Source: Dugong dugon (lineage: Eukaryota; Chordata; Mammalia; Sirenia; Dugongidae). From it: a stretch of DNA of 64,000 bases. The stretch spans positions 69,738,941 to 69,802,940 of the forward strand of contig CM057467.1 in NCBI GenBank assembly GCA_030035585.1, in the 5' to 3' direction. Of the stretch, positions 14,201 to 64,000 are shown one piece after another (positions within the stretch are counted from its first letter, which is position 1; the number at the start of each line of letters is the position of its first letter). Made by a program: the position numbers and the translations under genes. A model generated the notes under the pieces. It worked only from the letters and a program-made list of their open reading frames with translations. It searched no databases and was not told where the DNA came from.

Positions 14201-17200
14201 CCTACACACTTTTCCAGGTTCTCTCAGTGTTATGTTTCCTAATGCCTGACTGGCCAAAGAAAATCACATGGCCAAGTCCACATTCAAGGTGAGGGAGAAA
14301 CAGCACCTCATGATGGTGAGGAGCAGCAAAGTCACATTGCAAAGAAGCCTGCATATAAGCTTGGGAGGAATAGTGTGGTTGTTTTTTGTAAACAGTCTAC
14401 CACACACGTGCCTTACACATTTTAATTTTAAATATTCGTTAATTCACCTTTTGATACAGAGTCAAGGTCTTTTCTTTGAGGATACTTCAGCTGATTGAAT
14501 TCTGTGTTCTCTTGCTTATTTAAACACCAAATGAACCAGCTACGATTTCTAATTTTTGTTCCTTTAAAGTGGAATAAGAAGGTCTTTGGGAGAAAAAAAA
14601 AATGTGAATGAGGAATTCATCTAGTTTTTTATAATTCCCCCACCCCAGTCTCTTACAGTATTCCACCCACACCTAATTCAATTTCAGTTTTTTATAGTGA
14701 CCTATTCTGTCTTCACTGAATTTTTCAAAGCATTTGACTTAATTTTCTTGAAAATAGCATACTTTTTTTTCACTTAGATTTTGTAGATTTAAGCCATATT
14801 TAATTACATTGCGCAATTACAGTAATAAGTACTACTGACCCAACTGAGCCATCTGAAGACAAGGGCAACTGATTCTTGGTGAACATACTGCTCACCTAGT
14901 GGGTGTCCTGAGCAGTCAGTAGGCCAAGGCGTCAGTCAGAGGGAATTAAGAGCCTCGGTTTAGAGGAGGTTCATTAAGAGCTTCTATTATACCTGCCTCC
15001 TAGGGCTGTTGCAAGGATATAAAAATACCCTCAAAGTTCTTAGAACACTTGCCTGGCTCCTAATAAATACTCATTAAATGTTAGTTGTTATCATTATTAT
15101 CACGATCATTAGTGTTATTATTATTCAGACCAAGGAAAGACCTCGAGACAGGGTGGAGAGTGACCTGAGAAATAATAAAATGTGCCAGCCCCAGTGGTAT
15201 CTAGTGAAATTGGAGGGGAACGTTGGAGCTGGAAAGGGAGGATCAAATGAAAAAATTGTAAAACTCAACACAGAAGGATCCAGGAGATAGGACTATCAGG
15301 AATTGGGTGATTCGGGCAAGGAGCATGGAGAAGGGGGCATGTAAGGTAAGGGGAGATTATAATTTCAACGTATTTATTTGAAGCATGATAATTTAGAACA
15401 GTGGTTCCCAAGTGCTGGTTCACAGACTAGTTGCTTCGGCATCATCTGGGGAGCTTGTTAAAAATGCAGAGATTCTGATTCCTTAGGTCTGTGGTGAGAC
15501 CCAGGAACCTGTATTACTAAAAGCTGCCCAGGTAGATCTGGACAGCTATGTTTGGGAACATATGCCATGAAAACACAGGAATGGAAGTCAGGAAACCTGG
15601 GCTGTAGTCCTGGTCCAGAATAGACTTGTGATGGGACTTTTTTAGGACCCAGCTTCACATCTGTACAATAGGAAAAATTTCTGTGAAGTGACTTTCTCAG
15701 ACCTCTGTCTTGAGGGTCCAGGGAGATAAAGGGTATGAAGTGTTTTGTCCCTTGTAGGGCTCCCTGCATGTGTAAGGGGTAAGTGTTCAGATAGCAGCAG
15801 GTGCTGTCTGTGTTTGAGACCACCATGTTAATCAGTGCTCCTCCACCTGGTCTAATGCCCCTTTTGTCCCTCTCCTAGCCCTTGTAGCAGAACAAGGGAC
15901 TTGGCCCACATGATCTAAAATCCCATCCAATGGCAAAGTGCTTTAACTGTGATTTGTTTCATGTTTTACAGACACCAAGGTACTATATGTTCATATGGCT
16001 TCTCATAGATGGTATTTCTGCAATTTTAATTTTTGCCATATTTTATTTTCACTGGTAAGTATATATTTATATATTTTAAATGACTTATTTCCCAAAATAA
16101 AAATAACAAATGGTTTTTATAGAAAGTTGAGGGGGAAAAAAGGAGTTACATTCTTTTTGTAATCCCACTTGGGCAAATTCTCAGGAAGATGGGGTTTATA
16201 ATCTGAATTTCTTGTTTCTTCTCATGCCGCCTGCTATCCTTACTCCTCTACCTTCTCCCCAACATTAGAAAATATTTTAAGGATAAAGACTCTCACTAAA
16301 GCTTAGTCAGTGCCACTTACCATGGGTTCAATGCATAGCTGTTGGAAGAGAGCGGGAGTTGAAGGTTGTCCGGAACAAGTGCCTCCATAGTCCCATGTTA
16401 CATGAGACTGAATATAGCGAAGTGCTGTGCAAAGAGCAAGTTCACCAACTGGGAAGCCTGGGTTTTAGCTCTGGCTTTACCCCTTAGTTGTTGAGTGACC
16501 CTGGGAAAACAACTGCTGCTTTCTGGGTCATAGTCTTTTTATCTGTCCAGGAAAATTACATTTGAGAGACATTTCAGGGAAAGTCCTACGGGACTTCAAG
16601 GTTCGAGGTGAAAAGGGAACATCCTGGTTGAGGAAGGTTAGCTTGAGGTGAGTGTGGTAGTTCAGACCCCATCATGGCTTGTCATTTCTTGATTTGTGAC
16701 TTATCCTTTAAAGGGGGGAAGCATAAACCCTCTGCTTAAATGAGAATTTGGCTTGGTAATGTTTCTTTCCAGGCCACTGCCTTGAATTATTGCCTTTTTT
16801 CAAAGAAGCCTGTGAGGTTCATGAATGATGTGCTTTCTTTCCAGGTGGAAAGGGAAACAAAGAGACCAAGAGTACATAAGCACCAACATTCGCAAAGGTA
16901 AAGTAAGACACCTAGCCCACTCCTGTTTCTCCACTTCTACCCATTTCCTCCTTTAGAAAAAGTAGAGCTTAACCTGACCCCAACCCCCTACCATATTGAA
17001 ATAGTGAAAAGAAAATAATATAAGTAGAAAATAAAGATTTTTTCCTGGTTTTAAGAGTTCTTAGTTGCATGCTACAGAAACCAATTTGCCTGATCTACAC
17101 AGAAAGAGAATTTATTGAAAAGCTATTTGGGTACCCCCAAGAGACACCTAGAAGGTACAGGACCAAGTTTAGACCCAGGGAAAGAACAAGGAAAACTGGA

Positions 17201-20200
17201 CAGAAGCCAGGACCTCAGCCAATACCACAGCCCAGCTCCATTCAGGTTGAGGAGAATAGAGCTTTGAACGCTAAGCACAGAGTGCCACATCTTGCACCAC
17301 AAGTACTTTCAGGATGGGCACGTACTGCTGCACCGGCTGCTGCCACTTCTGCCACCAGAAAGTATTCATTGCCTCTCTACCCCTGAGGGTGCATTTTTCA
17401 GCACGTTAAAGGAATCAGTCCTTTGTCTTCTTTCTTACATAGTTCTTTATGAAGGTTTTAATGTTCTTTTCTTTGTCCTTGTGTTCATGGTGATTGTTCC
17501 GTTTATTACTGGTTTTTCAGTAATTTGATTCTGGTTTATATTGGTATGTGTGTATATATGAGAGAGAATGTGTGTATGTGTTTTCATCCTGCTTGGGTTT
17601 GTTGAGCTTCTTAGGTCTGTTAGAGTATAATTTTCATCAGATTTGGAAAAAATTTCAGTCTTTATTTCTTCAAATATTTTTCTGCCGCCACCCCGTTAGG
17701 GATTCCAATTACATGAATGTTGAACAGTTTGATATTGTCCCACAAGTACTGAAACTCCATTTGTTTTTCTTTCTAGCCTATTCTGTTTCTGTACTTCATT
17801 TTGGATCGATTCTGTTTCTGTGTATATTTTTTATTGTTATGTAACAAATTGCCACAAACCTAGCTGCTTGAAACAACACAAATTGATTATTTCACAGTTT
17901 CTGTGAGTCAGTAGTCCAGGCATGGTTAGCCTGGTCCTCTGCTTAGGGTATCATCAGGCTAAAATCAAGGTGTCGTCTAGGGCTGCAATCTCATCTGAGG
18001 CTCAGGGTCCTCTTCCAGACTCACTGATTATTGGCAGAATTTAGTTCCCAGCAGCTATAGGACTGAAGTCACCCATTTTCTCGCTGGCTGTTGGCAAAGT
18101 TTTGTTCTCAGCTCCTAGAGGCAGCCTTCAGGCTCTAGCCACATGGGCCTCTCAGAACATGGCACCTTTACTTCAAAGTCAACAGGAGAATCTCTCTCCA
18201 GTCCAGTATGATGGAGTCTTATATAATGTAATCGTGGGAGTGACTATCCTCATCACCTTTGTTATATAGTGTAACCTAATCAAGGTCTCAGTCACATTCA
18301 AGAGAAGTGGATTATCCAGGGCATGTATACCACAGGGTGGGAATCTTGGGAGCCATCTTAAAGTTCTGCCTCCCATACTGTCTGCAACTTCACTGATCTT
18401 TTCTTCTGTAATATCTAACCTGCTTAATCTCAACCAGTGAAATTTTCATTCAGATAATTTATTTTTCATCTCTGGGAGTTCCATTTGGTTCTTTTTTTTT
18501 TATATCTTCCATTTCTCATGTTGATGTTTCCTTTAAATATCTGAACATCGTTTAGTTACAATACTTGCTTTAATATCCTTTTCTGCTAGTTCCATCATCT
18601 GTTATTTCTGGGTCTGTTTCTACTGACTGACTTTTCTTCTTGATATGGATCATATTTTCCTGATTCTTGGCATGTCTAGTATCTATCATTATTTATCATA
18701 TAAGAAATTAAAACCAAGAAACCCTAAAAATATTTATTTACTGATTCATTTTTAAAAGTTATATTGTAGTGAAATATATATAACAGTTTTTCATGTTAAC
18801 CATTTTTAAGTGTACCATTCAGTGACTTTGATTTACATTCACTATGTTGTGCTGCCATTACCACTATCCATTTCCAAAAGTTTTACATCACTCCAGACAG
18901 AAACTCAGTACCCCTTCAGCAATAACTACATTTCCTCCTCTGCTCAGCCCCTGGTAACCACTAAGGAACTTTTGTGTCTGTGTATTTGCCTATTCTAGAT
19001 ATTTCATAAAAGTGGGATCATACAGTATTTATTCTTTTGTGTCTGGCTTTTTTCATTCAGCATAATGTTTTCAAGGTTCATCCATGTATCAGAATTTATT
19101 TCTGTTTATGGCTGAATAATATTCTACTGTATGTATATACTGTATCTTGTTTATCTGTGTATCTGTTGATAGACACTTGAGTTGTTTTTCTACTTGTGAA
19201 TAATACTGCAGTAAACATTGCTGTACGTGTATCTGTTTGAGTACCTGCTTTCAAATCTCTTGGGTATATACCTAGCAGTGGATTGCTGGGTCATATGGTA
19301 ATTCTATGCTTAACTTTCTGAGGAACTGCCAAACTGTTTTCTGTAGCAGTTACACCATTGTACATTCCCACTAGCAATGCACAAGGGTTTCAATTTCTCC
19401 GCATCCTCGCCAACACTTGTTTCCATTTTTCTGATAATAGCCATCCTAGTGGGTGTGAGATGATATCTAATTGTGGTGTTGATTTACATTTCCCTAACGA
19501 CTGATGACCTTGAGTATCTTTTCATGTGCTTATTGACAATTTGTATATCTGCTTTGCAGAAATATCTATTCAGATTCTTTGCCCATTTTAAAATTGAGTT
19601 GTTTGTCTTTTTGTTGTTGAGTTATAAAGTTATTTATATATTCTGGATATTAAACCCTTATCAGATATATGGTTCCCAACTATTTTCTCCCATTCAATAG
19701 GTTGTATTTTCACTTTCTTGATAAAATCCTTTGATGCACGTTTTTTTCGTTTTCATAAAGTTAAATTTATCTATTTTTGTTGTCTTAAAGTTTTACCTTT
19801 ATGTTTTCTTCTAAGAGTTATACAGTTTTAGCTCTTATGTTTAGGTTATTGATCCATTTTGAGTTAATTTTTGTATACAGGCAGCCCCTTGGTTATGAAC
19901 ATCCAACTTACGGACAACTCGTACTTGCTATTTAATGTTACATAAATTTCCCCTCACTTTGAAATGACTGACCAACCCTACTCACAACAAATTCTTCATC
20001 ACAATCACCTTCACTTGCTGCATGTGTAGCTTTTAAATCATTGAAAAGGCTTCAAGCTTTTTCTTGCACTAAAGTAAGGCTAAATAAGAACCATGTGGAC
20101 CTGTTCCGACTTACCTACAAATTCTTAAAGACACACTCAGGAACAAATCTTGTTAATAACCTGAGGACTGCCTATATATCATGAGGCATAAGTCCAACTA

Positions 20201-23200
20201 CATTCTTTTGCATGTGGAGATCCAGTTGTCCCAGCACCTTTTTTTGTTTTTTATTGTACTTTAGATGAAGGTTTACAGAGCAAATTTGTTTCTCATTAAA
20301 CAGTTAGTACACATTTTGTTTTGTGACATTGGTTGCCAACCCCATGACATGTCAACACTCTCCCCTTCTCGACCTTGAGTTCCCCATTACCAGCCTTCCT
20401 GTCCCCTTCTGCCTTCTTGTCCTTATCCCTGGGCTGGTGTGCCCATTTAGTCTCATTTTATTTTATGGGCCTGTATAATCTTTGGCTGAAGGGTGAACCT
20501 TAGGAGTGACGTCAGTACTGGGTGTCTTGGGGCCATACTCTCAGGGTTTCTCCAGTAGAATTTTGTTCTACATTTTTCTCCAGCTCTGTCCAGGACCTCT
20601 ATTATGATCCCTGTCAGAGCAGTCAGTGGTGGTAGCTGGGCACCATCTAGTTGTGCTGGACTCAGTCTGGTGGAGGCTGTGGTAGTTGTGGTCCATTAGT
20701 CCTTTGACTAGTCTTTCCCTTGTGTCTTTGGTTTTCTTCATTCTCCCTTGCTCCAGACAGGGTGGGACGAGTGGAGTATCTTAGATGGCAGCTCACAAGC
20801 TTTTAAGACTCCAGATGCTACTCATCAAAGTAGAATGTAGAACATTTTCTTTATAAACTATGTTATGCCAATTAAGCTAGATGTCCCTCGAGACCAGCAC
20901 CACTTATTGAAAGGCAGTTCTTTCCCCATTGAATGGACTTGGCACCCTTGTCAAAAAGCCATTGGCTATAGATGTATGGGCTTATTTCTGAAGCCTCAAT
21001 TCTGCTTCATTGCTCTATATGTCTATGCTTATCCTGTACCACACAGTTTTGATTACTGTCGCTTTATAGTATGTTTTGAAATTGGGACGTATGAATTCTC
21101 CTACCTTATTCTTCTTTGCAATATTGTTTTAGCTATTCAGGTCTCTTTGCAATGCTATATGACTTTGAGGATCAACTTTTCCATTTTGCAAAAAAGAATC
21201 TTGATAGAGATTGCATTGGATCTGTAGATCATTTTGGGTAGTGCTGACATCTTAACAAGATTGTCTTCCAATCTGTGAAAACAGGATGTCTTTCCATTTA
21301 TTTAAAATTTCTTTAAGCAATGTTTTACAGTTTTTAGTGTATAAGTTTTTCACCTCCTGGTTAAATTTATTCCTACATATTTTATTGTTTTAGATGCTGT
21401 CATAAATTGGATTGTTTTCTTGGTTTCCTTTTCAGATTGTTCATTGCTGTTGTATAGAAACACAACTGATTTTTCCGTGTTGATTCTGTACTCTGAAACT
21501 TTGCTAAATTCATTTATTAGCTCTAGTAGCTTTTTTTGTGGACTCTTAGGAATTTTCTATATATAGAATTATGTTGTCTGCAAACAGAGATAGTTTTACT
21601 ACTTCCTTTCCACTTTGGATGCTTTTAATTTCTTTTTGTTGCCAGATTGCTCTGTCTAGAATTTCCAATACAATGTTGAATAGCAGTGGTGAAAGAGGAT
21701 ATTCTTATCTTTTTCCTGATCTTAGGGGGAAAGCTTTCAGTCTTTCACCATTGAGTATGATGTTTGCTTTGGATTTTTCATAAATGCCTTTTATCATATT
21801 GAAGGATTTCCCTTCTATTCCTAGTTTGCTGATCGTTTTTATCATGAAAGAGTGTTGGATTTTGTCAAATACTTTTTCTGCATTAATTGAGATGATCATG
21901 TGGTTCTTTTCATTCTTTCTATCAGTGTGGTACATTACATTGATAGATTTCCTTATGTTGAGCCACCCTTGCATTCCCAAGGAAAATCCCACTTGGCCAT
22001 GGTTGGTAATGCTAATATTTTGTTGAGGATTTTTGCATCTGTATTCATAAGGGCTATTGGTCTATAATTTTCTTTCCTTGTGTTGTATTTAACTGGTTTT
22101 GGTATCAGAGTAATGCTGGCCTCATAGAATGAGTTAGGAAGTGCTCCCTCCTCTTCTATTTTTTTAAATAGTTTGAGCAGAAATGGTGTATTTCTTTAAA
22201 TGGTAGAATTCACCAGTGAAGTCATCTGGTCATGGACTTTTCTTTGTTGGGAGATTTTTTTATTACTGATTCAGTCTCTTCAATTGTTATAGGTCTGTTG
22301 AGATTTTCTTTTTCTTCTTGAATCTATTTAGGTAATTTGTGTATTTCTAGGAATCTGTCCATTTCATCTAGGTTATCTAATTTGTTGGCATACAGTTGTT
22401 CATAGAAATTGCTTTTAATCCTTTTCTATAGGGTCAGTAGTACTGTAGCCTTTTTCATTTCTGATTTTAGTTATTTGCATCCTCTCTCTCTCTTTTTTTT
22501 TTCCTTGTCAGTCTAGCTAAAGATTTGTTGACTTATTGATCTTTTCAAAGGACTAACTTTTGGTCTTGTTGATTCTCTCTATTGTTTTTCTATTCTCTAT
22601 TCCATTTATCTCTGTTCTAATCTTATATTTCCTTTTTCTGGTAGCTTTTGGCTTACTTTCTAAAGTTAGGTTATGGATTTGAGATCTTTGTTGTCTTAAT
22701 GTAGGTGTTTACAGCTATAGATTTCCCTCTGAGCACTGTTTCTACTGTATCCCATAGATTTTGGTATGTTGTTTTCATTTCCATTTATCTCTAAGTATTT
22801 TATAATTTCCTTGTGATTTCATCTTTGACCCATTGGTTGTTTTATTTCCATATATTTGTGAAATTCCCAATTTGCCTTGTGTTATTAATTTCCAGTTTTA
22901 TTACATGGTGGTCAGAGAAGATAGTTTGTTTACATTCAATCTTTTAAAATTTATTGAGACTTCTTTTGTGACCTAACATGATCTATCCTCTACTGATTCA
23001 TTTTTAAGTAATTAAAATAAGCCTATTTACATGTAACATAAATACCTTTTTTGAAAAATAATTATATTTTACAAAACAAAAAAAATATATAAGAGGAGTG
23101 GAATTGTTTACACTTTTACAAATCTCTTTAATGCCTTTCTTAATACATGACAGTAGATTTATGTCATGTGATCTCTGAAAAATGCCACGGTACATTGATG

Positions 23201-26200
23201 AAGAGAACGGGAATGAAAAAGTGCAAATATTAGTATCATTATGAAAATAATTTTGGCCTATGCTTCCCTTGAATGGATCTCAGAGGCCTCTAGGCGTCCT
23301 CAAATGATACTCTGAGAACTGCTGATCTAAATCTTCACATTCATTGGCAAAATGATGTACATAATGTCCTTTTTATGAGGACATTCATTGTTGTAAATGA
23401 ATGCAGAATCTATGGTAATGTCCATTATTGGTATCTTCATTTTGAAAACATTTATCAGTCTTCCCAGAGAGTTTTCAATTTTGTTAGCCTCTTCAAAGGA
23501 CCAGCTTTTGGCTTTTGCCAAATCTTTCAGTTATATACTTACTTTCTATTTAATTAATATCTGCTTTTAGCTTTATTACTTCACCCTTCTGTTTACATTG
23601 GATTTAATTTGCTGTTTATTTCAAACTTCTTGAGATTAATTAATTTTCAGTCTTTTTCTATTATAATAAATTGTATAATGCTATAAAATTTCTTCTAAGT
23701 ACTGCTTTATTTGCATCTCAAAAGTGTTTGTTGGTTTGTAGTATTTTTGTTACCATTCAATTCAAAATATTTTCTAATTTACTAATTTTTTTCTTTAATC
23801 CACAGGTTATTTAGAAGCTGTATTTCTTAATTTCAAATATATGAGGAATTCTAGTTATTATTTTGGAATTTACTTTTAGCTCAATTATTTTGTGCTAATA
23901 AAACACATTTGTATTATTTCAGTCTCTTGAAATGTGGTGGGATTTGCATTCTAGGCTAGTATATGATTAAAAACAAGTAAATATTTATTAATTACAGATT
24001 CAGTTTCTTGAACAGATATAGAACTAGTAATGTTTTCTATTTCTTTTCATGTCTGTTTTTGTAAATACTGTTTTGTTGATTAATTAACAACCTTCCAACA
24101 AAAATACTCTAAGCCCAAATGGCTCCACTGATAAATTCTTACAGATACTTATGAAAGAAATACACTAATTTTTCACACATTCTTTTCACAGAAAAGAGTA
24201 AGAGGGGATATTTCCCAACTCATTTAATGAGGTCAGAATAACCCTGAAAATAAACCTGATAGAACAGGACAAGAAAAGAAAGTTATAATCACAAATGACC
24301 GTAGATGCAAAAATCATACAAAAATTAGCAAATTGATTCCAGTGATATGGAAAGGGATCATTACCAAATGGAATTTATTCCAAGAATACACGGTTCAGCA
24401 TTCAAAAATCAATCAGTGTAATCTACCACATTAACAAAATAAATGAGAAAAACTATATGATTGACTCAATATTTGCAGGAAAAGCATTTGATAAAATTAT
24501 CATTCATTTATGATAAAAAAAAAACTCTTAGAAAAAACAGGAATAGAAAACAATTTCTTTTATCTGATAAAGGGTACCTACAAAAACACAATAGCTAACA
24601 TCATACTTAATGGTGAAATATTAAAAACTTTCCCCTTGAGTCAGGAACACAATATGTCTACTCTCACTACGTCTATTCAATGTTGTATTTGCGGTTCTAG
24701 CCAGTGCAATAAGACAAGAAAAATAAAAAGCATAAAGATTGGAAAGAATTAAAACTTTCATTATTCATAGGTTAAAATGATGTGTAAATGACACAACTGT
24801 GTAAGTAGGAGGTCTAAAAGAATATAAAACAAACTATTGTAATCAGTAACTGAATTTAGCAAGATCGCTGGATATGTGGTCAGTATACAAAAATCAATTA
24901 TGCATCCATATAGTAGTACCAATCAGGACGTGAAATTTAAATAAAAAATGCTGTTTACAACAGCATAAAAACAGAAAACAGAAAATTCCTAAAATAATTC
25001 TTATGAAAGACCTCTATAATCAAAACTACATTACATTGTTGAGACTGTGGCCCCCAGATCAGAACTTAAGCTACTCCCAAAGTACACCTTTCAGCCAGAG
25101 ATTAGACAGGCCTATAAAACAACGACACGTGAAGAACGTGCTAATTCTTAGTTCAGTCAGGTATACGAGACCAAATGGGTATATATCTGATAAGGGTTTA
25201 ATATCCAGAATATATAAATAACTTTATAACTCAACAACAAAAAGACAAACAACTCAATTTTAAAATGGGCAAAGGATCTGAATAGATATTTCTGCAAAGC
25301 AGATATACAAATTGTCAATAAGCACCTGCCCAAAAGCAAAGACAAGAAGGCAGGAAGGGACAGGAAAACTGGACAAATGGACACGGAGAACCTGGGGTGA
25401 AAAGGGGGAGAGCGATGACACATTGCAGGAATTGCAACCAATGTCACAAAACAATTTGTGTATAAATTTTTGAATGAGGAACTAATTTGCGCTGTAAACT
25501 TTCACTTTTAAAGCACAATGAAATTTTAAAAAAGGATATTATTGCATTATACATAATAACAGAAAAGTGAGAACTATTCAGTATGCATCAACAGAATGAA
25601 TAATTTATTGTGATTTATTCATATAATGCAATGTTGTTGTTTTTAGGTGCCATTGAATTGGTTCCAACTCATAGCGACCCTACATACAACAGAATGAAAC
25701 ACTGCCCAGTCCTGCACTATCCTCACATTCATTGCTACATTTGAGCCCATGGAGCCACTGTGTCAATTCGTCTCATTGAGGGTCTTCCTGTTTTTCTGTG
25801 ACCCTCTTCTTTATCCAGCATGATGTCCTTCTCTAGGCACTGGTCCCTCCTGATAACATGTCCAAAGTATGTGAGATGAAATCTCTCCATCCTCCCTTCT
25901 AAGGAGCATCCTGGCTGTACTTCTTCCAAGACAGATTTGTTCGTTCTTCTGGCAGTCCATGGTATAGTCAATATTGTTCACCAAAATCATAATTCAAAGG
26001 CATCAATTCTTCTGTCTTCTTAGTTACTGTCCAGCTTTCACATGTGTATGAGGTCATTGAAAATACCATGGCTTGGGTCAGGTGCACTTTTCTTGTCAAA
26101 GTGACATCTTGGCTTTTTAACACTTTAAAGAGGTCTTTTGCAGCAGATTTGCCCAGTGTAATATTTTGTTTGATTTCTTGACCACTTTTTCCATGGGAGT

Positions 26201-29200: not shown

Positions 29201-32200
29201 AAGAATGAAACAGGACCCACACCTCACACCATACACAAAAACTAATACAAAATGGATCAAAGACCTAAATATAAAACCAAAAACTGTAAAGATCATAGAA
29301 GGAAAAATAGAGTCAATGCTAGAGGCCCTAATACATGGTATTAACATAACATTAACCATAACTAGCAATACACAAACACTAGAAGATAAGCTAGATAACT
29401 GGGATCTTCTCAAAATTAAACACACTCATTAAAACACTTCACCAAAGAAGACATTCAAGCTCCTAATAGATACATGAGGAAATGCTCGAGATCACTAGCC
29501 GTTAGAGAAATGCAAATCACAGCTACAGTGAGATACCATCTCACCAATATTACTGGCACAAATCAAAAAAACAGAACAAATGTTGGAGAGGCTGCGGGGA
29601 GATTGGAACTCTTATGCTCTGCTTGTGGGAATACAAAATGGTACAACCATTTTGGAAAACGATATGGTGCTTCCTTCAAAAGCTAGAAATAGAAATACTA
29701 TATGATCCAGCAATCCCACTACTAGGAATATACCCTAGAGAAATAAGAGCCGTCACATGAATAGACATATGCACACCCATTTTCATTGCAGCATTGTTCA
29801 CAATAGCAAAAAGATGGAAACAACCTAGGTGCCCATCAACAGATGAATGGATAAACTATGGTACATACACATAATGGAATACTCCACAGTGATAAAGAAC
29901 AAAAGAACAATGATGAATCTGCAAAGCATCTCAACATGGATGAATCTGGAGGTCATTATGCTGAGTGAAAATAAGTCAGTCACAAAAGAACAAATATGGT
30001 ATGAGACCACTACTATAAACACTTATGGAAAAGTTAACACACAAAAAGAAACAATCTTTGATGGTTATGAGGGAGGGGAAGGGTGGGTGGGAAAAACACT
30101 AAATAGACAATAGATAAGTAGTAACTTTGGTGAAGGGTAAGACAGTACACAGTACTGGGGAAGCCAGCACAATTTGTCCAAGACAAGGTCATGGAAGATC
30201 CATAGACGCATCCAAACTCCCCGAGAAACCAAATTACTGGGCTGAGGGCTGTGGGGACCATGATCTTGGGGAACATCTAGCTCAACTGGCATAACATAGT
30301 TTATAGAGAAAATATTCTACATTCTACTTTGATGAGTAGCATCTGGGATCTTAAATGCTTGTGAGCGGCTGTCTAAGATATTCCACTGGTCTCACCCCGT
30401 CTGGAGCAAGGGAGAATGAAGAAAACCAAAGACACAAGGGAAAGATTCGTCCAAAGGACTAATGGACCACAACTACCACAGCCTCCACCAGAATGAGTCC
30501 AGCACAACTAGATGGTACATAGCTACCACCACTGACTGCTCTGACAGGGATCACAATAGAGGGTCCCGGACAGAGCTGGAGAAAAATGTAGAACAAAATT
30601 CTAACACACACACACACAAAAAAAAAAGACCAGACTTACTGGTCTGATGGAGACTGGAGAAACCCTGAGACTATGGCCCCAGGACACTCTTATAGCTCAG
30701 TAATGAAGTCACTTATGAGGTTCACCCTTTAGCAAAGATTAGACAGACGCATAAAACAAATGAGACTAAATGAGCACATCAGATCAAGGGCAAGGATGAG
30801 AAGGCAGGAGGCGACAGGAAAACTGGTAATGGGGAACACAAGGTCAAGAAGGGGAGAGTGTTGACATGTTGTGGGGTTGGTAACCATTGTCACAAAACAA
30901 TATGTGTTTGCTCTGTAAACCTTCATCTAAAGTACAATAAACAAAATAATAAAAAAAAGTTGGTTCTTTCATTTTGATCAAAGATTCTATAGAAGAATAC
31001 TGACCAAAAGGGGGAAAATCAGAACCAGATTTCAAGTTCTCAGTGGAATTCAGACTTTCTGGAGCCATTGAGGGTGGATGAGCCCCTGAAATTATTGTCC
31101 TGAGATGATCTTTAAACTCGTAAAGCTTAAGCCAAAACTACCCCTGAAGTCTTTGAACAAAAATAGCTTATTTTAATTAGTAAAGTACACCTACTTTGAG
31201 CATTGTGCTCTTTTAAAGAATTATCTATGTGAGATCAAATTGACAACGGCAACTGGGAATGTTAGATGGGAAGCTTGGGGCCAGTGAGTTTAAGATAATG
31301 GTGGTAGAATAATGTGGAAAAGGATAGTGAGCATAGTATCACAACTTGAAGAATGTAACCAATGTCACTCAATTGTACATGTAGAAATTGTTGAAATGAT
31401 GTATCTTTGGCTATGAATATTTTCACCAAATTTTTTTTGAAAGTTGGTTCTTTGAAACTATTAGTAAGACTGATAAACTCTTATCAAGAGAGGAACAGGT
31501 GGACATATATCTGTAAAACAGGTAAATATAGACATATATGTAGATATACAGAGATTGATTACCAGATGTAAGAGGGACTATCTCTACAGATCCTAGATAT
31601 AAAAGGAAAAGTAAGGGAATATTATGAACATTTTCATGCCATTAAACCTGAAAAATGAAATGGACAAATTCCTTGAAATGCACAATATACCAGAACTGAG
31701 AGAAAAATAGAAAATTTAAATAACCCACTATCTATCAGAATTGAATTCCTGTATCAAAAGTGTCACCACAAAGAAATTCTAGGTCCAGCATTGGTGAATC
31801 ATATATTTCAGGAAAAAATAATACCAATCTTACAGAAAATCAGAAAAAAAGAGGAGAAAGGAACACTTCTCAGCTAATTCTTTGAAGCCAGCAATACTCT
31901 GATATAAAAAACCTGTCAAAGACATTGTAAGAAACTGAATTTACAGGTTAATACCACTCATGAACTTAGACATAAAAATTATTAACAAATATTAACAAAT
32001 TGAATCTATCAGTATATAAAAAGGATAATACATCATGAGCAAGTGGGATTTATCCCAGTAGTGCAAGATGGGTTTATACATTTGAAAATTAATCAATATA
32101 ATCCACCGTATTAAAATACAGGGAAAAAGCATAAAATACAGGGACAAAATTCAACACCCATTTATGATAAACGCTCCTGGCAACCTAGGAATAGAATCGA

Positions 32201-34292
32201 ACTTCCTCAGTCTGATAAGAGGTACCACAGCTCCTGGCAACCTAGGAATAGAATCGAACTTCCTCAGTCTGATAAGAGGTACCACAAAAAAACTATAGCC
32301 AATATACTTAATGATGAAACACTGAATATTTTCCTTCAATAATCAGAAATAAGGCAGGGATAGATCTACTTTCACTACTTCTGTTCAGCCTTGTCATGGA
32401 GATCCTAACCGGTATAATAAGGCAAGAAAGAGAAATAACAGGCATAAAGATTGAAAAGGAAGAAATAAAACTGTCCTGATTCACAGTTGATAGTGATTGT
32501 TTACATAAGAAATTCTAAGGAATCAAACAACAACAAACAAACCTATTGGAACTAAGAAATGAGTTAGATATAAGGTCAATTTACAAAAAATCAGTTGTAT
32601 GCCTACATATTGGCAATGAATTATTGGAAAATTACAAAATTTTGAAATAACGTCACTTAGAATAGCAATAAAAGCATACGCTACTTAGGAATAAATTTAA
32701 TGAAAGCTTTGGAAGCCCTCACAAAGGAATATATATAAAGGGTCACTGAAAAGTACAAAACCTGAAAGAAAGAGACACAAATAAATGGAGCAATATACCG
32801 TGTTCATGAATTAGAAAACTCAGTATCATAAATATATTAATTGTCATGGAATTGACCTTACAGACTCAAGTCCAATAAAAATCTCCTCCAGTGAAGCTGA
32901 CAAAAATGCAGATTATATGTGTAGATGTGTCTTCCAGATTGAAATTACACTCAAGAGTAAAAATAATTTTGAATCCTGGATTTTCTTCTTTGGGTTCTCA
33001 CATTCTTTTAGATTTTGGCCCCACAGTTCCTCACTATATTAACTCTTGGATAATTTTAAGATGTTTTATTATTTTTAATTTGTTTTAAGTAAGAGGATTG
33101 GTCCCAAGTTCCATTATTAGAAGTCTCTATCATATATTTTTTCCATCAGTCAGACAAAAAAAATTTTTTTTCTCTGCCTTCAAGCCGCCATTCTGTTGAG
33201 GAGTGCTCATGTTTCTATTTAAATTAATTTGGAAGCAATGGTTGTAAAATGCATGAACTTTAAGCAAATGTCAGTCCCTGCCTTTTGAGAGCTTCCTTGG
33301 TGAGCTAAAGCCTCACTCAATGGACTCTTCAGTCCCAGGCAGAATTGGAGGACCTTAATAACATCTGCACAAAATCTTGGGGTGGGTGAGTTTGGAGGAA
33401 ATAACCTGGGAGGGTAAGGGGCTAATTGACAGCTGACTAGATTTCAATCACATGGCAAACAGAGTTTGGAGAAGACATTTGAGGAGTCTGTGTTTCTATC
33501 TTTTTTATCCCACAGATACTCAGAGTAGGGGCCCCCAAGAGAGAAAGATTCGAGAAACTTTATCCACACAGCCTCTTGACCGAGTCTCAGAAAGTCCTTG
33601 GACTCCAAAAGCCCTCTACCCGGGTTTAGCCAGCAGCACAAGTGACCATTCAGGTGCTTTCCATTTCACAGTACCCCCGAAGAATAAAGCCAAAAAACAA
33701 CTATTCAAGCAAAACATCAAACCTCTGACGCCTGCCAAGGATAACATTAAACCACCAGAGCCCAAAGAGAAGCTCTTTGAGCCAACCAAAACACCTGTCT
33801 CGTGCGCCACCAGACGGTCCACCCTCCAAACTGCCTTGCCTGTCTTAAAGGTGCATGAATGTAAAATTCCCACCAACGTGGCCCTCCATCCTAGAACAAA
33901 CCCCATAGAGGCCCCCATCGTTCAATCTTCCTCCCAGGAATCCTTTGTAACAGCAGATACCAGCTTTAGGATGTCCTGGATAGAGAAATAGCCACACCTT
34001 ACCCCCTTCTTCCTCTTCCTCTCTGTCTCTATGGGTGGTGATGGTGGGGAGTGGTAAAGAGAGGAGTGCGGAAGGACCATTGAGGCTCTCGGAGTCCATT
34101 TTGGTCCAGCCTTTCTATAAAGAATGCCTCTCAAGGGCAAGGGGAGAACAGTTGTGTGTGGTCTTGGAGATGGTGATGGTGGTTTTCTGGGTATTGGAGG
34201 GTTTTTCTCATCCTAATCCTTCTATAGTAGTCCCTGCTAAAGGAGTGACTGTGGTGAACATCAGCCTGTAAATAAAGGCAACCTCTCAGGAA
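11084..34292 (+). CDS. GDPD4: GDPD4, 3' part of gene (gene-level span, introns included)
   Basis: The gene encodes glycerophosphodiester phosphodiesterase domain-containing protein 4, a predicted multi-pass membrane member of the GDE family. Its relatives GDPD5/GDE2 and GDE3 cleave glycerophosphodiesters or GPI anchors, with the catalytic barrel outside the cytosol. Only the last part is here: the final strand and helix of the TIM barrel, a membrane segment and the C-terminal tail. The metal-binding and catalytic residues would lie upstream, outside the window. The exons are 11084-11231, 15972-16054, 16845-16897 and 33516-33991 plus 3' UTR, and all phases match. The identification rests on the [12 protein letters not shown] and SVTTDN motifs and on the known tail-to-tail neighbour MYO7A. 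An extra exon inside the 16.6-kb last intron cannot be excluded. Confidence 0.85.
11430..11612 (-). repeat. MIR SINE (antisense)
   Basis: It has the antisense MIR signature: TTATCATTCCCATGAGGAAA, then AAGGTCACATGATATGGGAT. Confidence 0.6.
11700..11790 (-). mobile_element. Old L1 ORF2 scrap (antisense)
   Basis: It is a short complement of L1 ORF2 (TCAAAAATCATTTGGGCATA, then TCTGTTCCATTGAT), with no open frame of note. Confidence 0.55.
11840..13600. other. GDPD4 intron, nothing recognised
   Basis: No exon with matching splice sites was found. The open frame at 12290-12583 (97 codons) and its antisense partner (12325-12549) have no recognisable domain, and the stretch is GC-richer than its surroundings by chance or age. 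A weak L2-like patch is possible around 12600-12760. Confidence 0.4.
13640..13760 (+). repeat. MIR SINE fragment (sense)
   Basis: GGAGTCAGACTGTGCAGATT, then GTTAACCTGTTTATGTCTCA, follows the MIR order (B box, then the TTAACCTCTCTGTGCCTCAG-type core). Confidence 0.6.
13885..14400 (-). repeat. Old interspersed repeat, class uncertain
   Basis: AACTTAGTGGCTTAAAACAG, then TTATTTCTCATAATTCTGTA, identifies a common mammalian repeat whose relative lies at 17830-18385. A poly-A run (13911-13926) interrupts its left end. I do not assign a class. The - strand open frame at 14051-14257 is part of it. Confidence 0.45.
14400..14985. other. GDPD4 intron, nothing recognised
   Basis: It is AT-rich, with no exon or clear repeat. 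Confidence 0.4.
14990..15125 (+). repeat. MIR SINE 3' part (sense)
   Basis: CTAGGGCTGTTGCAAGGATA, then AATAAATACTCATTAAATGT, is the standard MIR 3' end. An ATT/ATC-rich simple stretch follows (about 15085-15125). Confidence 0.7.
15393..15565 (+). repeat. MER5A-type hAT DNA element
   Basis: It opens CAGTGGTTCCCAAGTGCTGG. It has ATCATCTGGGGAGCTTGTTA followed by AAAATGCAGAGATTCTGATT, the fixed order of the non-autonomous Charlie-group element MER5A. The right terminus is decayed. Confidence 0.75.
15972..16054 (+). CDS. GDPD4: GDPD4 exon: transmembrane segment
   Basis: The acceptor is ATGTTTTACAG and the donor TG|GTAAGT. The 83-bp exon encodes 27 residues plus two bases. The peptide [20 protein letters not shown] continues with FAIFYFH and is uniformly hydrophobic, so it is very likely the last membrane helix. 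It follows the barrel as expected for the GDE2/GDPD4 group. The phase fits both the upstream exon (phase 0) and the next exon (TG|G gives Trp). Confidence 0.87.
16845..16897 (+). CDS. GDPD4: GDPD4 exon: juxtamembrane segment
   Basis: The acceptor is CTTTCTTTCCAG and the donor G|GTAAAG. The 53-bp exon encodes [17 protein letters not shown], a basic stretch right after the membrane helix, consistent with a cytosolic face (positive-inside rule). It ends one base into a codon, matching the start of the exon at 33516 (G|AT gives Asp). Confidence 0.82.
17050..17395 (+). repeat. Repeat-derived stretch, class uncertain
   Basis: The segment with GCATGCTACAGAAACCAA and AGAGAATTTATTGAAAAGCT looks like a dispersed repeat. 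Its open frame (17069-17386, 105 codons) is basic and proline-rich. It has no splice sites in phase with GDPD4, so I do not call it an exon. Confidence 0.35.
17400..17760 (-). mobile_element. L1M 3' UTR fragment (antisense)
   Basis: The complement of an old L1 3' UTR is visible near TTTATTTCTTCAAATATTTT, followed by GATTCCAATTACATGAATGT. Confidence 0.5.
17830..18385 (-). repeat. Old interspersed repeat, relative of 13885-14400
   Basis: It starts TGTAACAAATTGCCACAAAC, followed by AGCTGCTTGAAACAACACAA, and ends near GGGAGCCATCTTAAAGTTCT. The layout matches the copy at 13885-14400, but this one is more complete at its right end. The class is not assigned. Confidence 0.5.
18440..18720 (-). mobile_element. 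Old L1 3' UTR fragment (antisense)
   Basis: It carries the complement of an L1 3' UTR (GGGAGTTCCATTTGGTTCTT, then CTTTAATATCCTTTTCTGCT). Confidence 0.55.
19878..20173. mobile_element. Tigger-like (TcMar) non-autonomous DNA transposon
   Basis: The left terminus is CAGGCAGCCCCTTGGTTAT. The right terminus, read in reverse, is AGGCAGTCCTCAGGTTAT, giving imperfect terminal inverted repeats. A TA dinucleotide flanks each end (19876-19877 and 20174-20175). Removing the element restores a normal L1 sequence across the site, so it inserted at a TA as mariner/Tigger elements do. It is about 296 bp with no transposase frame, hence mobilised in trans. Confidence 0.75.
20239..20893 (-). mobile_element. 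Young elephant-type L1, 3' UTR only (antisense)
   Basis: The element begins with a T-rich run (the poly-A tail in antisense) and carries the complement of the L1 3' UTR seen at 30.2-30.95 kb. It is flanked by an 8-bp target-site duplication, CCAGCACC, at 20231-20238 and 20894-20901. It is heavily 5'-truncated and contains no ORF2. Confidence 0.85.
22991..23425. other. AT-rich intron, nothing recognised
   Basis: No exon or clear repeat was seen between two L1 fragments. Confidence 0.4.
23430..24105 (-). mobile_element. Old L1 ORF2 fragment (antisense)
   Basis: The complement of the L1 ORF2 middle is visible (CTTCAAAGGACCAGCTTTTG, and later ACTGCTTTATTTGCATCTCA). It is decayed. Confidence 0.6.
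24106..25034 (+). mobile_element. Old L1 ORF2 fragment (sense)
   Basis: Sense ORF2 sequence includes the frame at 24510-24752 with [16 protein letters not shown], a block downstream of the RT active site. It is opposite in orientation to the fragment on its left, so the two are separate insertions or an inversion. Confidence 0.65.
25035..25535 (+). mobile_element. Elephant-type L1 3' UTR (sense) with an internal foreign patch
   Basis: The left part (25035-25180) and right part (25326-25535, ending near AAAGCACAATGAAATTTT) match consecutive pieces of the L1 3' UTR at 40.98-41.29 kb. Between them lies a 145-bp segment of L1 ORF2 (25181-25325) that does not belong there. It is an inverted near-perfect copy of 19526-19670; see the findings. 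Confidence 0.75.
25632..26638 (-). mobile_element. RTE (BovB-like) LINE, 3' half (antisense)
   Basis: Read on the - strand, the reverse transcriptase core and the 3' region are present. The frame 25968-26411 has [20 protein letters not shown], then a [10 protein letters not shown] block, and ends with [12 protein letters not shown]. The frame 25735-25971 has [20 protein letters not shown], typical of the RTE C-terminal end. The 3' tail (ATGAGTTGGAACCAATTC in reverse) lies at 25640-25680. Stops and shifts inactivate it. A 21-bp tandem duplication sits at 26191-26232. Confidence 0.85.
26640..28095 (+). mobile_element. Old L1M 3' region (sense)
   Basis: The block around 27750-27815 (AACCTAGGATTCTATCCAAC, then CTTTCAAAAATGAAGTTGAA) is characteristic of the 3' UTR of old L1M families. 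The 5' part of this stretch is weaker. No coding content remains. Confidence 0.55.
28097..28555 (+). mobile_element. Internally deleted RTE derivative
   Basis: The left part resembles the RTE 5' region (CATTTGTCAGTTTGTCATAC, and TCAGCAGGGTCACTCATGGT). It is joined directly to an RTE 3' end (CATGAGTTGGAGTCAACTCA). The reverse transcriptase is absent, so this is a short non-autonomous form. A TCTG/TCTT simple repeat follows at once, as is usual for RTE tails. Confidence 0.6.
28556..28612. repeat. (TCTG)n/(TTCC)n/(TC)n simple repeat
   Basis: A pyrimidine microsatellite is attached to the 3' end of the RTE derivative. Confidence 0.85.
28613..28735 (+). mobile_element. Old L1 ORF2, left part of interrupted copy
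   Basis: Sense ORF2 sequence (AGCAGAAATCAATGAAATAG, then ATGAACAAAGTAAAAACTTG) stops at the target site TTGATTCTTTCA (28724-28735). It resumes at 31444. Confidence 0.7.
28736..30959 (+). mobile_element. Young elephant-type L1, 5'-truncated (sense)
   Basis: ORF2 C-terminal half plus the full 3' UTR are present. The frame 28944-29432 runs 162 codons, with [20 protein letters not shown] and [20 protein letters not shown]. Further pieces follow to 30113. It is flanked by a near-perfect 12-bp target-site duplication (TTGATTCTTTCA at 28724, TTGGTTCTTTCA at 30960). The tail is an A-rich AATAATAAAAAAAA. Relative to the copy at 38745 it has more frame breaks, so it is inactive. It is nested in an older L1. 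Confidence 0.85.
30972..31443 (+). mobile_element. Short insertion ending in the extended L1 3' tail
   Basis: The right half (about 31340-31440) matches the extra 3' segment at 8725-8820, including GAATGTAACCAATGTCACTC and TTTTCACCAAA. The left half is not recognised. It lies between two copies of TTGGTTCTTT (30960 and 31444), indicating a separate insertion at the same site as the L1 to its left, or a 3' transduction. Confidence 0.55.
31444..32955 (+). mobile_element. Old L1 ORF2, right part of interrupted copy
   Basis: It continues the ORF2 cut at 28735, through the reverse transcriptase (TCAATATAATCCACCGTATT, the block after the catalytic site) to its C-terminal part. A perfect 57-bp tandem duplication (19 codons) lies at 32173-32286. 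No long frame survives. Confidence 0.75.
32960..33500. other. GDPD4 intron end, nothing recognised
   Basis: No repeat is confidently assigned. The last 40 bases form the polypyrimidine tract and acceptor of the GDPD4 terminal exon. Confidence 0.5.
33516..33991 (+). CDS. GDPD4: GDPD4 terminal coding exon: C-terminal tail
   Basis: The acceptor is CTTTTTTATCCCACAG. The preceding exon ends one base into a codon, and G|AT gives Asp here. The frame then stays open for 158 codons to a TAG at 33989-33991. The tail is hydrophilic and low-complexity, rich in Pro, Lys, Thr and Ser (for example [20 protein letters not shown]), with no membrane segment or domain I know, so it is probably a disordered cytosolic tail. 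I cannot confirm from memory that other mammals have the same tail. The call rests on phase, length of open frame, splice site and the polyadenylation signal downstream. Confidence 0.72.
33992..34292 (+). other. GDPD4: GDPD4 3' UTR
   Basis: About 300 bp runs from the TAG to just past the AATAAA at 34271. Short - strand frames that cross it are shadows. Confidence 0.65.
34271..34276 (+). terminator. GDPD4: Polyadenylation signal AATAAA of GDPD4
   Basis: A canonical hexamer lies 280 bp after the GDPD4 stop codon. Cleavage would be expected 15-25 bp further on. Confidence 0.75.

Positions 34293-35677: not shown

Positions 35678-64000
<28,323 letters not shown>

What the first reader, a model, noticed from the sequence alone, without database searches (positions are those of the whole stretch)
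25181..25325. 145-bp near-perfect inverted copy of an old L1 segment inside another element
Positions 25181-25325 are the reverse complement of 19526-19670 with one mismatch in 145 bases by my reading. Both share private differences from usual L1 sequence (for example GTTATAAAGTTATTTATATA), so this is not family consensus similarity. The patch interrupts an elephant-type L1 3' UTR (25035-25535), has no poly-A tail, and joins at GCAC, which the L1 UTR would also have there. This looks like a recent templated insertion (copying of a sequence 5.7 kb away during break repair or fork switching) rather than retrotransposition. The source is old and decayed, which makes 99% identity striking.
Basis: partly seen in the sequence, partly recalled or inferred. 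Interest (0 to 1): 0.75.

Follow-up and report, generated by a model that had tools for sequence, protein, structure and literature searches.

The report
Repair patch copied from nearby DNA
A 145-base stretch of an old mobile-element copy was copied, flipped, into another mobile-element remnant about 5.5 thousand bases away, most likely while the cell mended a DNA break; this is a neat example of a kind of event already known in vertebrate genomes.

Summary
Window 25181-25325 is the reverse complement of 19526-19670 at 144 of 145 bases, ungapped, and the match stops at both ends. The 19.5-kb block is the source: it lies in an uninterrupted old L1 stretch that two other window copies match right across. 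The 25.2-kb block interrupts an L1 3'-UTR-like element that four other window copies carry without it. At 25 of 144 comparable sites both blocks share a base where those two paralogues agree on another, so this is not subfamily resemblance. No poly-A or target-site duplication was found at the patch. The junctions show a few bases of microhomology. The best reading is a templated, repair-mediated duplication. That class is described: Pace et al. 2009 list 824 human cases inside transposable elements with the donor within 5 kb, median insert 147 bp. This one, 5.5 kb away, is just past their cut-off. It is a new member of a known kind. Not tested: genome-wide copy number (the genome search did not complete, eight tries), orthologous empty sites and read support. 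The age is only loosely bounded, about 0.04-25 million years under assumed rates.

The parts
25181..25325 (-). Patch: inverted copy of 19526-19670, inserted in a 3'-UTR-like element
   Evidence: 144 of 145 identical to the reverse complement of the source; edges abrupt
19526..19670 (+). Source block, inside a continuous old L1 fragment
   Evidence: Two window paralogues align without a break over 19185-19728 and 19158-19728, at 109 of 144 in the block for each and 285 of 394 and 316 of 423 in the flanks
25035..25180 (+). Left half of the interrupted UTR-like element
   Evidence: Joined with the right half, it aligns in one piece to the copy at 41046-41299; homologous matches begin at 25040
25326..25540 (+). 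Right half of the interrupted UTR-like element
   Evidence: Matches at 5.2, 8.9, 20.3, 30.8 and 41.1 kb
25177..25182 (+). Left junction: GGG-T-AT; T at 25180 where the source and 4 of 4 UTR copies have C. Either a CA microhomology with a later change, or a one-base filler
25322..25328 (+). Right junction: GCAC shared by the patch end and 3 of 4 UTR copies; CACC in register in the 20-kb copy
19158..19728 (-). Old L1 stretch that carries the source (strand by recall of L1 coding sense)
   Evidence: Continuous alignment to window paralogues near 39.6 kb and 5.8 kb
20237..22259 (-). Facing L1/UTR matches, the other arm of an imperfect inverted repeat with 24086-25535
   Evidence: 690, 198 and 86 bp inverted matches at 67-77%
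24086..25535 (+). Arm of the imperfect inverted L1/UTR repeat that holds the patch

Best explanation
A DNA break or stalled fork arose inside an L1 3'-UTR remnant at about 25.18 kb. A free 3' end paired through a few bases with the opposite-strand sequence of an old L1 at 19.5-19.7 kb, about 141-145 nt were copied, and the new strand then annealed back to the other side of the break at a second microhomology. The result is a short inverted duplication inside a transposable element: a repair-mediated templated duplication (SDSA, MMBIR or polymerase-theta type). Shown here: identity, direction of copying, abrupt edges, absence of poly-A and target-site duplication, short junction homology. Inferred: the break, the pathway and the enzyme.
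For: 144 of 145 identity to a block 5,510 bp away; source native to its L1, patch foreign to its UTR; 25 of 144 sites shared privately against two paralogues; flanks at 25-50% ungapped identity; no poly-A/T and no abutting flank repeat; microhomology at the right junction in 3 of 4 UTR copies; size close to the median of the published class, 147 bp.
Against: The spacer of 5.5 kb is just beyond the 5-kb limit of the published proximal class; in that study's other group, 17 of 29 examined events (those sampled there had donors on another chromosome) looked like retrotransposition. Short microhomology can arise by chance. Uniqueness of the pair in the genome is untested (genome search did not complete). 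The T at 25180 needs a filler base or a later mutation.
Confidence: 0.85

Rival explanations
1. The patch was made through RNA: a transcript over the 19.5-kb L1 was reverse-transcribed and used as filler at the break (class 2 templated sequence insertion), or the L1 enzyme switched templates and back while the UTR element was being inserted.
For: Class 2 insertions also lack poly-A and target-site duplications and show microhomology, and RNA is proposed as their template (PMC5110952, passages).
Against: The donor is close by, where an RNA intermediate has no need to be local. Switching during UTR insertion would make the patch as old as the UTR copy, whose relatives in the window differ by about 20-30%, against 1 in 145 for the patch.
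Confidence: 0.07
2. Both blocks belong to a family of near-identical copies elsewhere, and the patch came from a third copy.
For: The genome-wide copy number was not tested (genome search did not complete).
Against: The source decays like its own L1 surroundings, and the best other match in 64 kb is 76-80%. A closest match that happens to lie 5.5 kb away would be a coincidence.
Confidence: 0.04
3. Assembly artefact.
For: The length is near that of a short read; no reads could be examined.
Against: Both junctions lie at internal UTR positions where the host element goes on without evident loss. The patch differs from the source at one base and 25180 differs from both parents. The window has no N.
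Confidence: 0.03
4. Ectopic gene conversion between two L1 copies.
For: High identity between repeats of one broad family.
Against: Conversion needs homology on both sides; the flanks are unrelated and the acceptor is UTR, not the source's L1 region.
Confidence: 0.01

Closest known systems
Repair-mediated duplications (RDs), Pace, Sen, Batzer and Feschotte 2009, PMC2671141 (abstract, sections 6 and 12, and passages of others read)
   Same: Insert inside a transposable element, nearby donor on the same chromosome, about 150 bp, microhomology or filler, no poly-A in the near class. An inverted case, an ACSBG2 exon, is mentioned.
   Different: Spacer 5.5 kb, just over their 5-kb line. The donor is itself a repeat. 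Elephant is not in their species table, and the word does not occur in the text.
MMBIR-linked templated insertions, PMC8421209 (passages read)
   Same: Inverted copy of a nearby template with microhomology at the junctions; found as human germline variants.
   Different: That search covers templates within 100 bp of the insertion; here 5.5 kb.
Short-range template switches in great apes, PMC7954356 (section 8 part 1 and passages read)
   Same: Inverted templated copying and return to the first strand.
   Different: Median copied length 12, maximum 128 in the gold-standard set, modelled within one replication fork.
Class 2 templated sequence insertions, PMC5110952 (abstract and passages read)
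   Same: No target-site duplication, no poly-A tail, microhomology at the junction.
   Different: Those derive from distant regions, with RNA proposed as template; here the source is nearby.
Local copy in pig Tex14, PMC3248578 (passages read)
   Same: Short segment copied to a nearby site with little damage to the target.
   Different: 51 bp, 360 bp away, same orientation.

Membership tests
Repair-mediated duplication (Pace et al. 2009) | Insert of at least 50 bp that interrupts one transposable element | tested here: met
   145 bp between two halves of one UTR-like element; the joined halves align in one piece to the 41-kb copy. No repeat library was used.
Repair-mediated duplication (Pace et al. 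2009) | Exactly one other copy in the genome | not tested
   One near-identical copy in the 64-kb window; the genome search did not complete.
Repair-mediated duplication (Pace et al. 2009) | Donor within 5 kb (their ad hoc cut-off for the proximal class) | tested here: not met
   Spacer 5,510 bp, start to start 5,655 bp. The authors call the limit ad hoc; 58 of their 1,136 lay over 5 kb on the same chromosome. So by their strict list it would fall in the distant group, while it works like the proximal ones.
Repair-mediated duplication (Pace et al. 2009) | Junction microhomology, filler or small deletion | tested here: met
   GCAC in 3 of 4 UTR copies at the right; CA or a one-base filler at the left. 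Short enough to be partly chance.
Repair-mediated duplication (Pace et al. 2009) | No poly-A/T tail | tested here: met
   Edges printed and inspected, no run of A or T at either edge.
Retrotransposed copy (LINE-1 mediated) | Poly-A tail and target-site duplication | tested here: not met
   No tail; the longest repeat shared by the 25-base flanks is a 5-mer that does not abut the patch.
Gene conversion tract | Homologous sequence on both sides of the tract in donor and acceptor | tested here: not met
   Flank identity 5-10 of 20, ungapped.
MMBIR / template switching | Dependence on a replicative polymerase switch | not testable with these tools
   One product cannot separate SDSA, MMBIR and polymerase theta.

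The most novel reading that the evidence does not exclude
The facing L1 and UTR copies (20.2-22.3 kb minus, 24.1-25.5 kb plus) formed a fold-back or inverted-repeat fork structure that placed the 19.5-kb L1 next to the break. Decayed, roughly 70%-identical inverted repeat pairs would then steer where repair takes its template over more than 5 kb, and facing pairs would be predicted to carry an excess of inverted templated insertions genome-wide.
Probability: 0.12. Interest if true: 0.5.

Novelty: new member of a known kind. Interest (0 to 1): 0.22.

Why it matters
It shows how a repeat remnant serves as a marker for such events. If facing L1 copies steer the choice of template, old repeats would shape where new duplications arise, which a genome-wide survey could test directly. 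I saw nothing that suggests a function for this locus, but did not test for one.

Tried and rejected
Retrotransposition of the patch was rejected: no poly-A and no target-site duplication. Gene conversion was rejected: no flanking homology. Copying in the other direction (25.2 kb to 19.5 kb) was rejected: the 19.5-kb block sits in continuous L1 that aligns across it to two paralogues. A patch from several donors was sought: exact 14-mers of the two UTR halves against the whole window gave none for the left half, and for the right half only other UTR copies and one isolated 14-mer at 17189.

That was wrong: 3 of 4 hold it. It also quoted fourth flank steps that had run off the extracted stretch; one search replaces them. 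A target-site duplication around the whole UTR element was sought and gave only 5-mers, so I cannot say how that element arrived.

Dating: under assumed rates of 1.0e-9 to 2.2e-9 per site per year per lineage (my assumption, from no call), 1 difference in 145 gives about 0.04-19 million years over the two 95% ranges, and counting the junction base (2 in 146) about 0.4-25. This cannot place the event before or after the split of living elephants.

Full report
Observation. Window 25181-25325 is the reverse complement of 19526-19670 at 144 of 145 bases without gaps; BLASTN extends it by three bases to 146 of 148. Outside the block the sites are unrelated: 5, 7, 10 and 8 of 20 on the left and 6, 9, 5 and 6 of 20 on the right in successive ungapped 20-base steps. 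In a self-comparison of the window, 6 pairs had at least 30 bp at 92% or more, and this is the only one of at least 100 bp above 95%. Under a simple binomial model with 77% expected identity (about that of the best other match) 144 or more of 145 has a probability of about 1.5e-15; at 93%, the identity of the next most similar long pair, it is 3e-4. The model ignores correlation between sites and is only a guide.

Which is the source. Two other L1 copies in the window align to the 19.5-kb stretch over 19185-19728 and 19158-19728, across the block and both flanks. Identity is 109 of 144 in the block for each, and 285 of 394 and 316 of 423 in the flanks. The 19.5-kb block is therefore native to an old L1 fragment and decayed to the same degree as its surroundings. 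The 25.2-kb block lies between two halves of an L1 3'-UTR-like element (25035-25180 and 25326-25540). With the halves joined, the 41-kb copy aligns to them in one piece (183 of 265 columns), and the copies at 20, 30 and 8 kb also span the site in a multiple alignment. A further copy at 5 kb covers only the right half. Copying went from 19.5 kb to 25.2 kb.

Not family resemblance. At 25 of the 144 sites where both paralogues could be compared, source and patch share a base while the two paralogues agree on another. The only source/patch difference is at 19576: source T, patch C, paralogues split, so its direction is open on window evidence.

Junctions. The four UTR copies read GGGCAGTTTCTG (41 kb), GGGCACACCAGCCC (20 kb), GAGCACATCAG (30 kb) and AGGCACAGCAG (8 kb) at the site. 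The acceptor reads GGGT-ATATATC...AATAAGCAC-CTGCCC, and the source reads CCATATATC...AATAAGCACATG. At 25180 the acceptor has T where the source and 4 of 4 copies have C: either a CA microhomology followed by a change, or a one-base filler. If the acceptor once read like the 20-kb copy, the in-register overlap is CAC and about 141 bases were added without loss; if it was two bases shorter, the overlap is GCAC. I cannot decide between these. There is no poly-A or poly-T at the edges, and the longest exact repeat between the 25-base flanks is a 5-mer that does not abut the patch.

Surroundings. 24086-25535 and 20237-22259 face each other as inverted L1 and UTR matches of 690, 198 and 86 bp at 67-77%, apart from the patch itself. 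Of 22 overlapping 10-kb tiles of the window, each split in two halves, the tiles beginning at 17501 and 20001 hold the most inverted match, 1,122 bp (148 of it the patch pair) and 710 bp; two others hold 231 and 76 bp and 18 hold none. Direct matches occur in 6 of 22 tiles, none of them the two named. This layout could have brought the donor near the break, but the source lies some 0.7-0.9 kb off the mirror position of the UTR pair (my arithmetic from the centres). One locus proves nothing.

Mechanism. The best account is copying from a nearby opposite-strand template during repair of a break or stalled fork, with microhomology at entry and exit. Which pathway (SDSA-like, MMBIR or polymerase theta) cannot be told from one product.

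Known class. Pace et al. 2009 (PMC2671141; abstract, sections 6 and 12 and passages of others read) found 1,136 human transposable elements interrupted by a sequence with one other copy in the genome. For 824 the donor lay within 5 kb, with mean insert 162 bp and median 147 bp. Of 39 near events examined, 0 had poly-A/T; of 29 others examined, 17 did. They report the class also in chimpanzee, orangutan, macaque, cow, dog, mouse, rat, chicken and zebrafish. One copy in opposite orientation is mentioned, an ACSBG2 exon. The present case lies just beyond their 5-kb line, so by their strict list it would be in the distant group, which they do not classify confidently; its junctions are those of the near group. 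MMBIR-type inverted templated insertions occur as human germline variants (PMC8421209, passages). Shorter switches are common in great apes: 4,017 events, gold-standard median 12 and maximum 128 bases (PMC7954356, section 8 part 1). A 51-bp same-orientation copy from 360 bp away causes a pig infertility allele (PMC3248578, passages). My literature searches did not aim at this exact locus, and I make no claim about whether it is in print.

Limits. Orthologous sites and reads are not available here. The dating range is wide.

Verdict.

Noticed in passing
32173-32286: A perfect 57-bp tandem duplication (two identical units) in L1-like sequence, a second recent-looking duplication in the window.
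   Followed up: partly
20556-20884 and 30273-30603: Two inverted L1 stretches 92.7% identical over 331 columns, with a 35-bp perfect match near their 3' ends (20250-20284 and 30907-30941): probably two copies of one younger subfamily.
   Followed up: no
25034-25045: The UTR-like element that holds the patch joins what looks by recall like an internal L1 coding region directly, with only 5-mers shared between its flanks. It may be an internally deleted L1 rather than a separate insertion.
   Followed up: partly
20237-22259 and 24086-25535: Imperfect inverted L1/UTR pair; the tiles that hold it have the most inverted match of the 22 tiles tested.
   Followed up: partly
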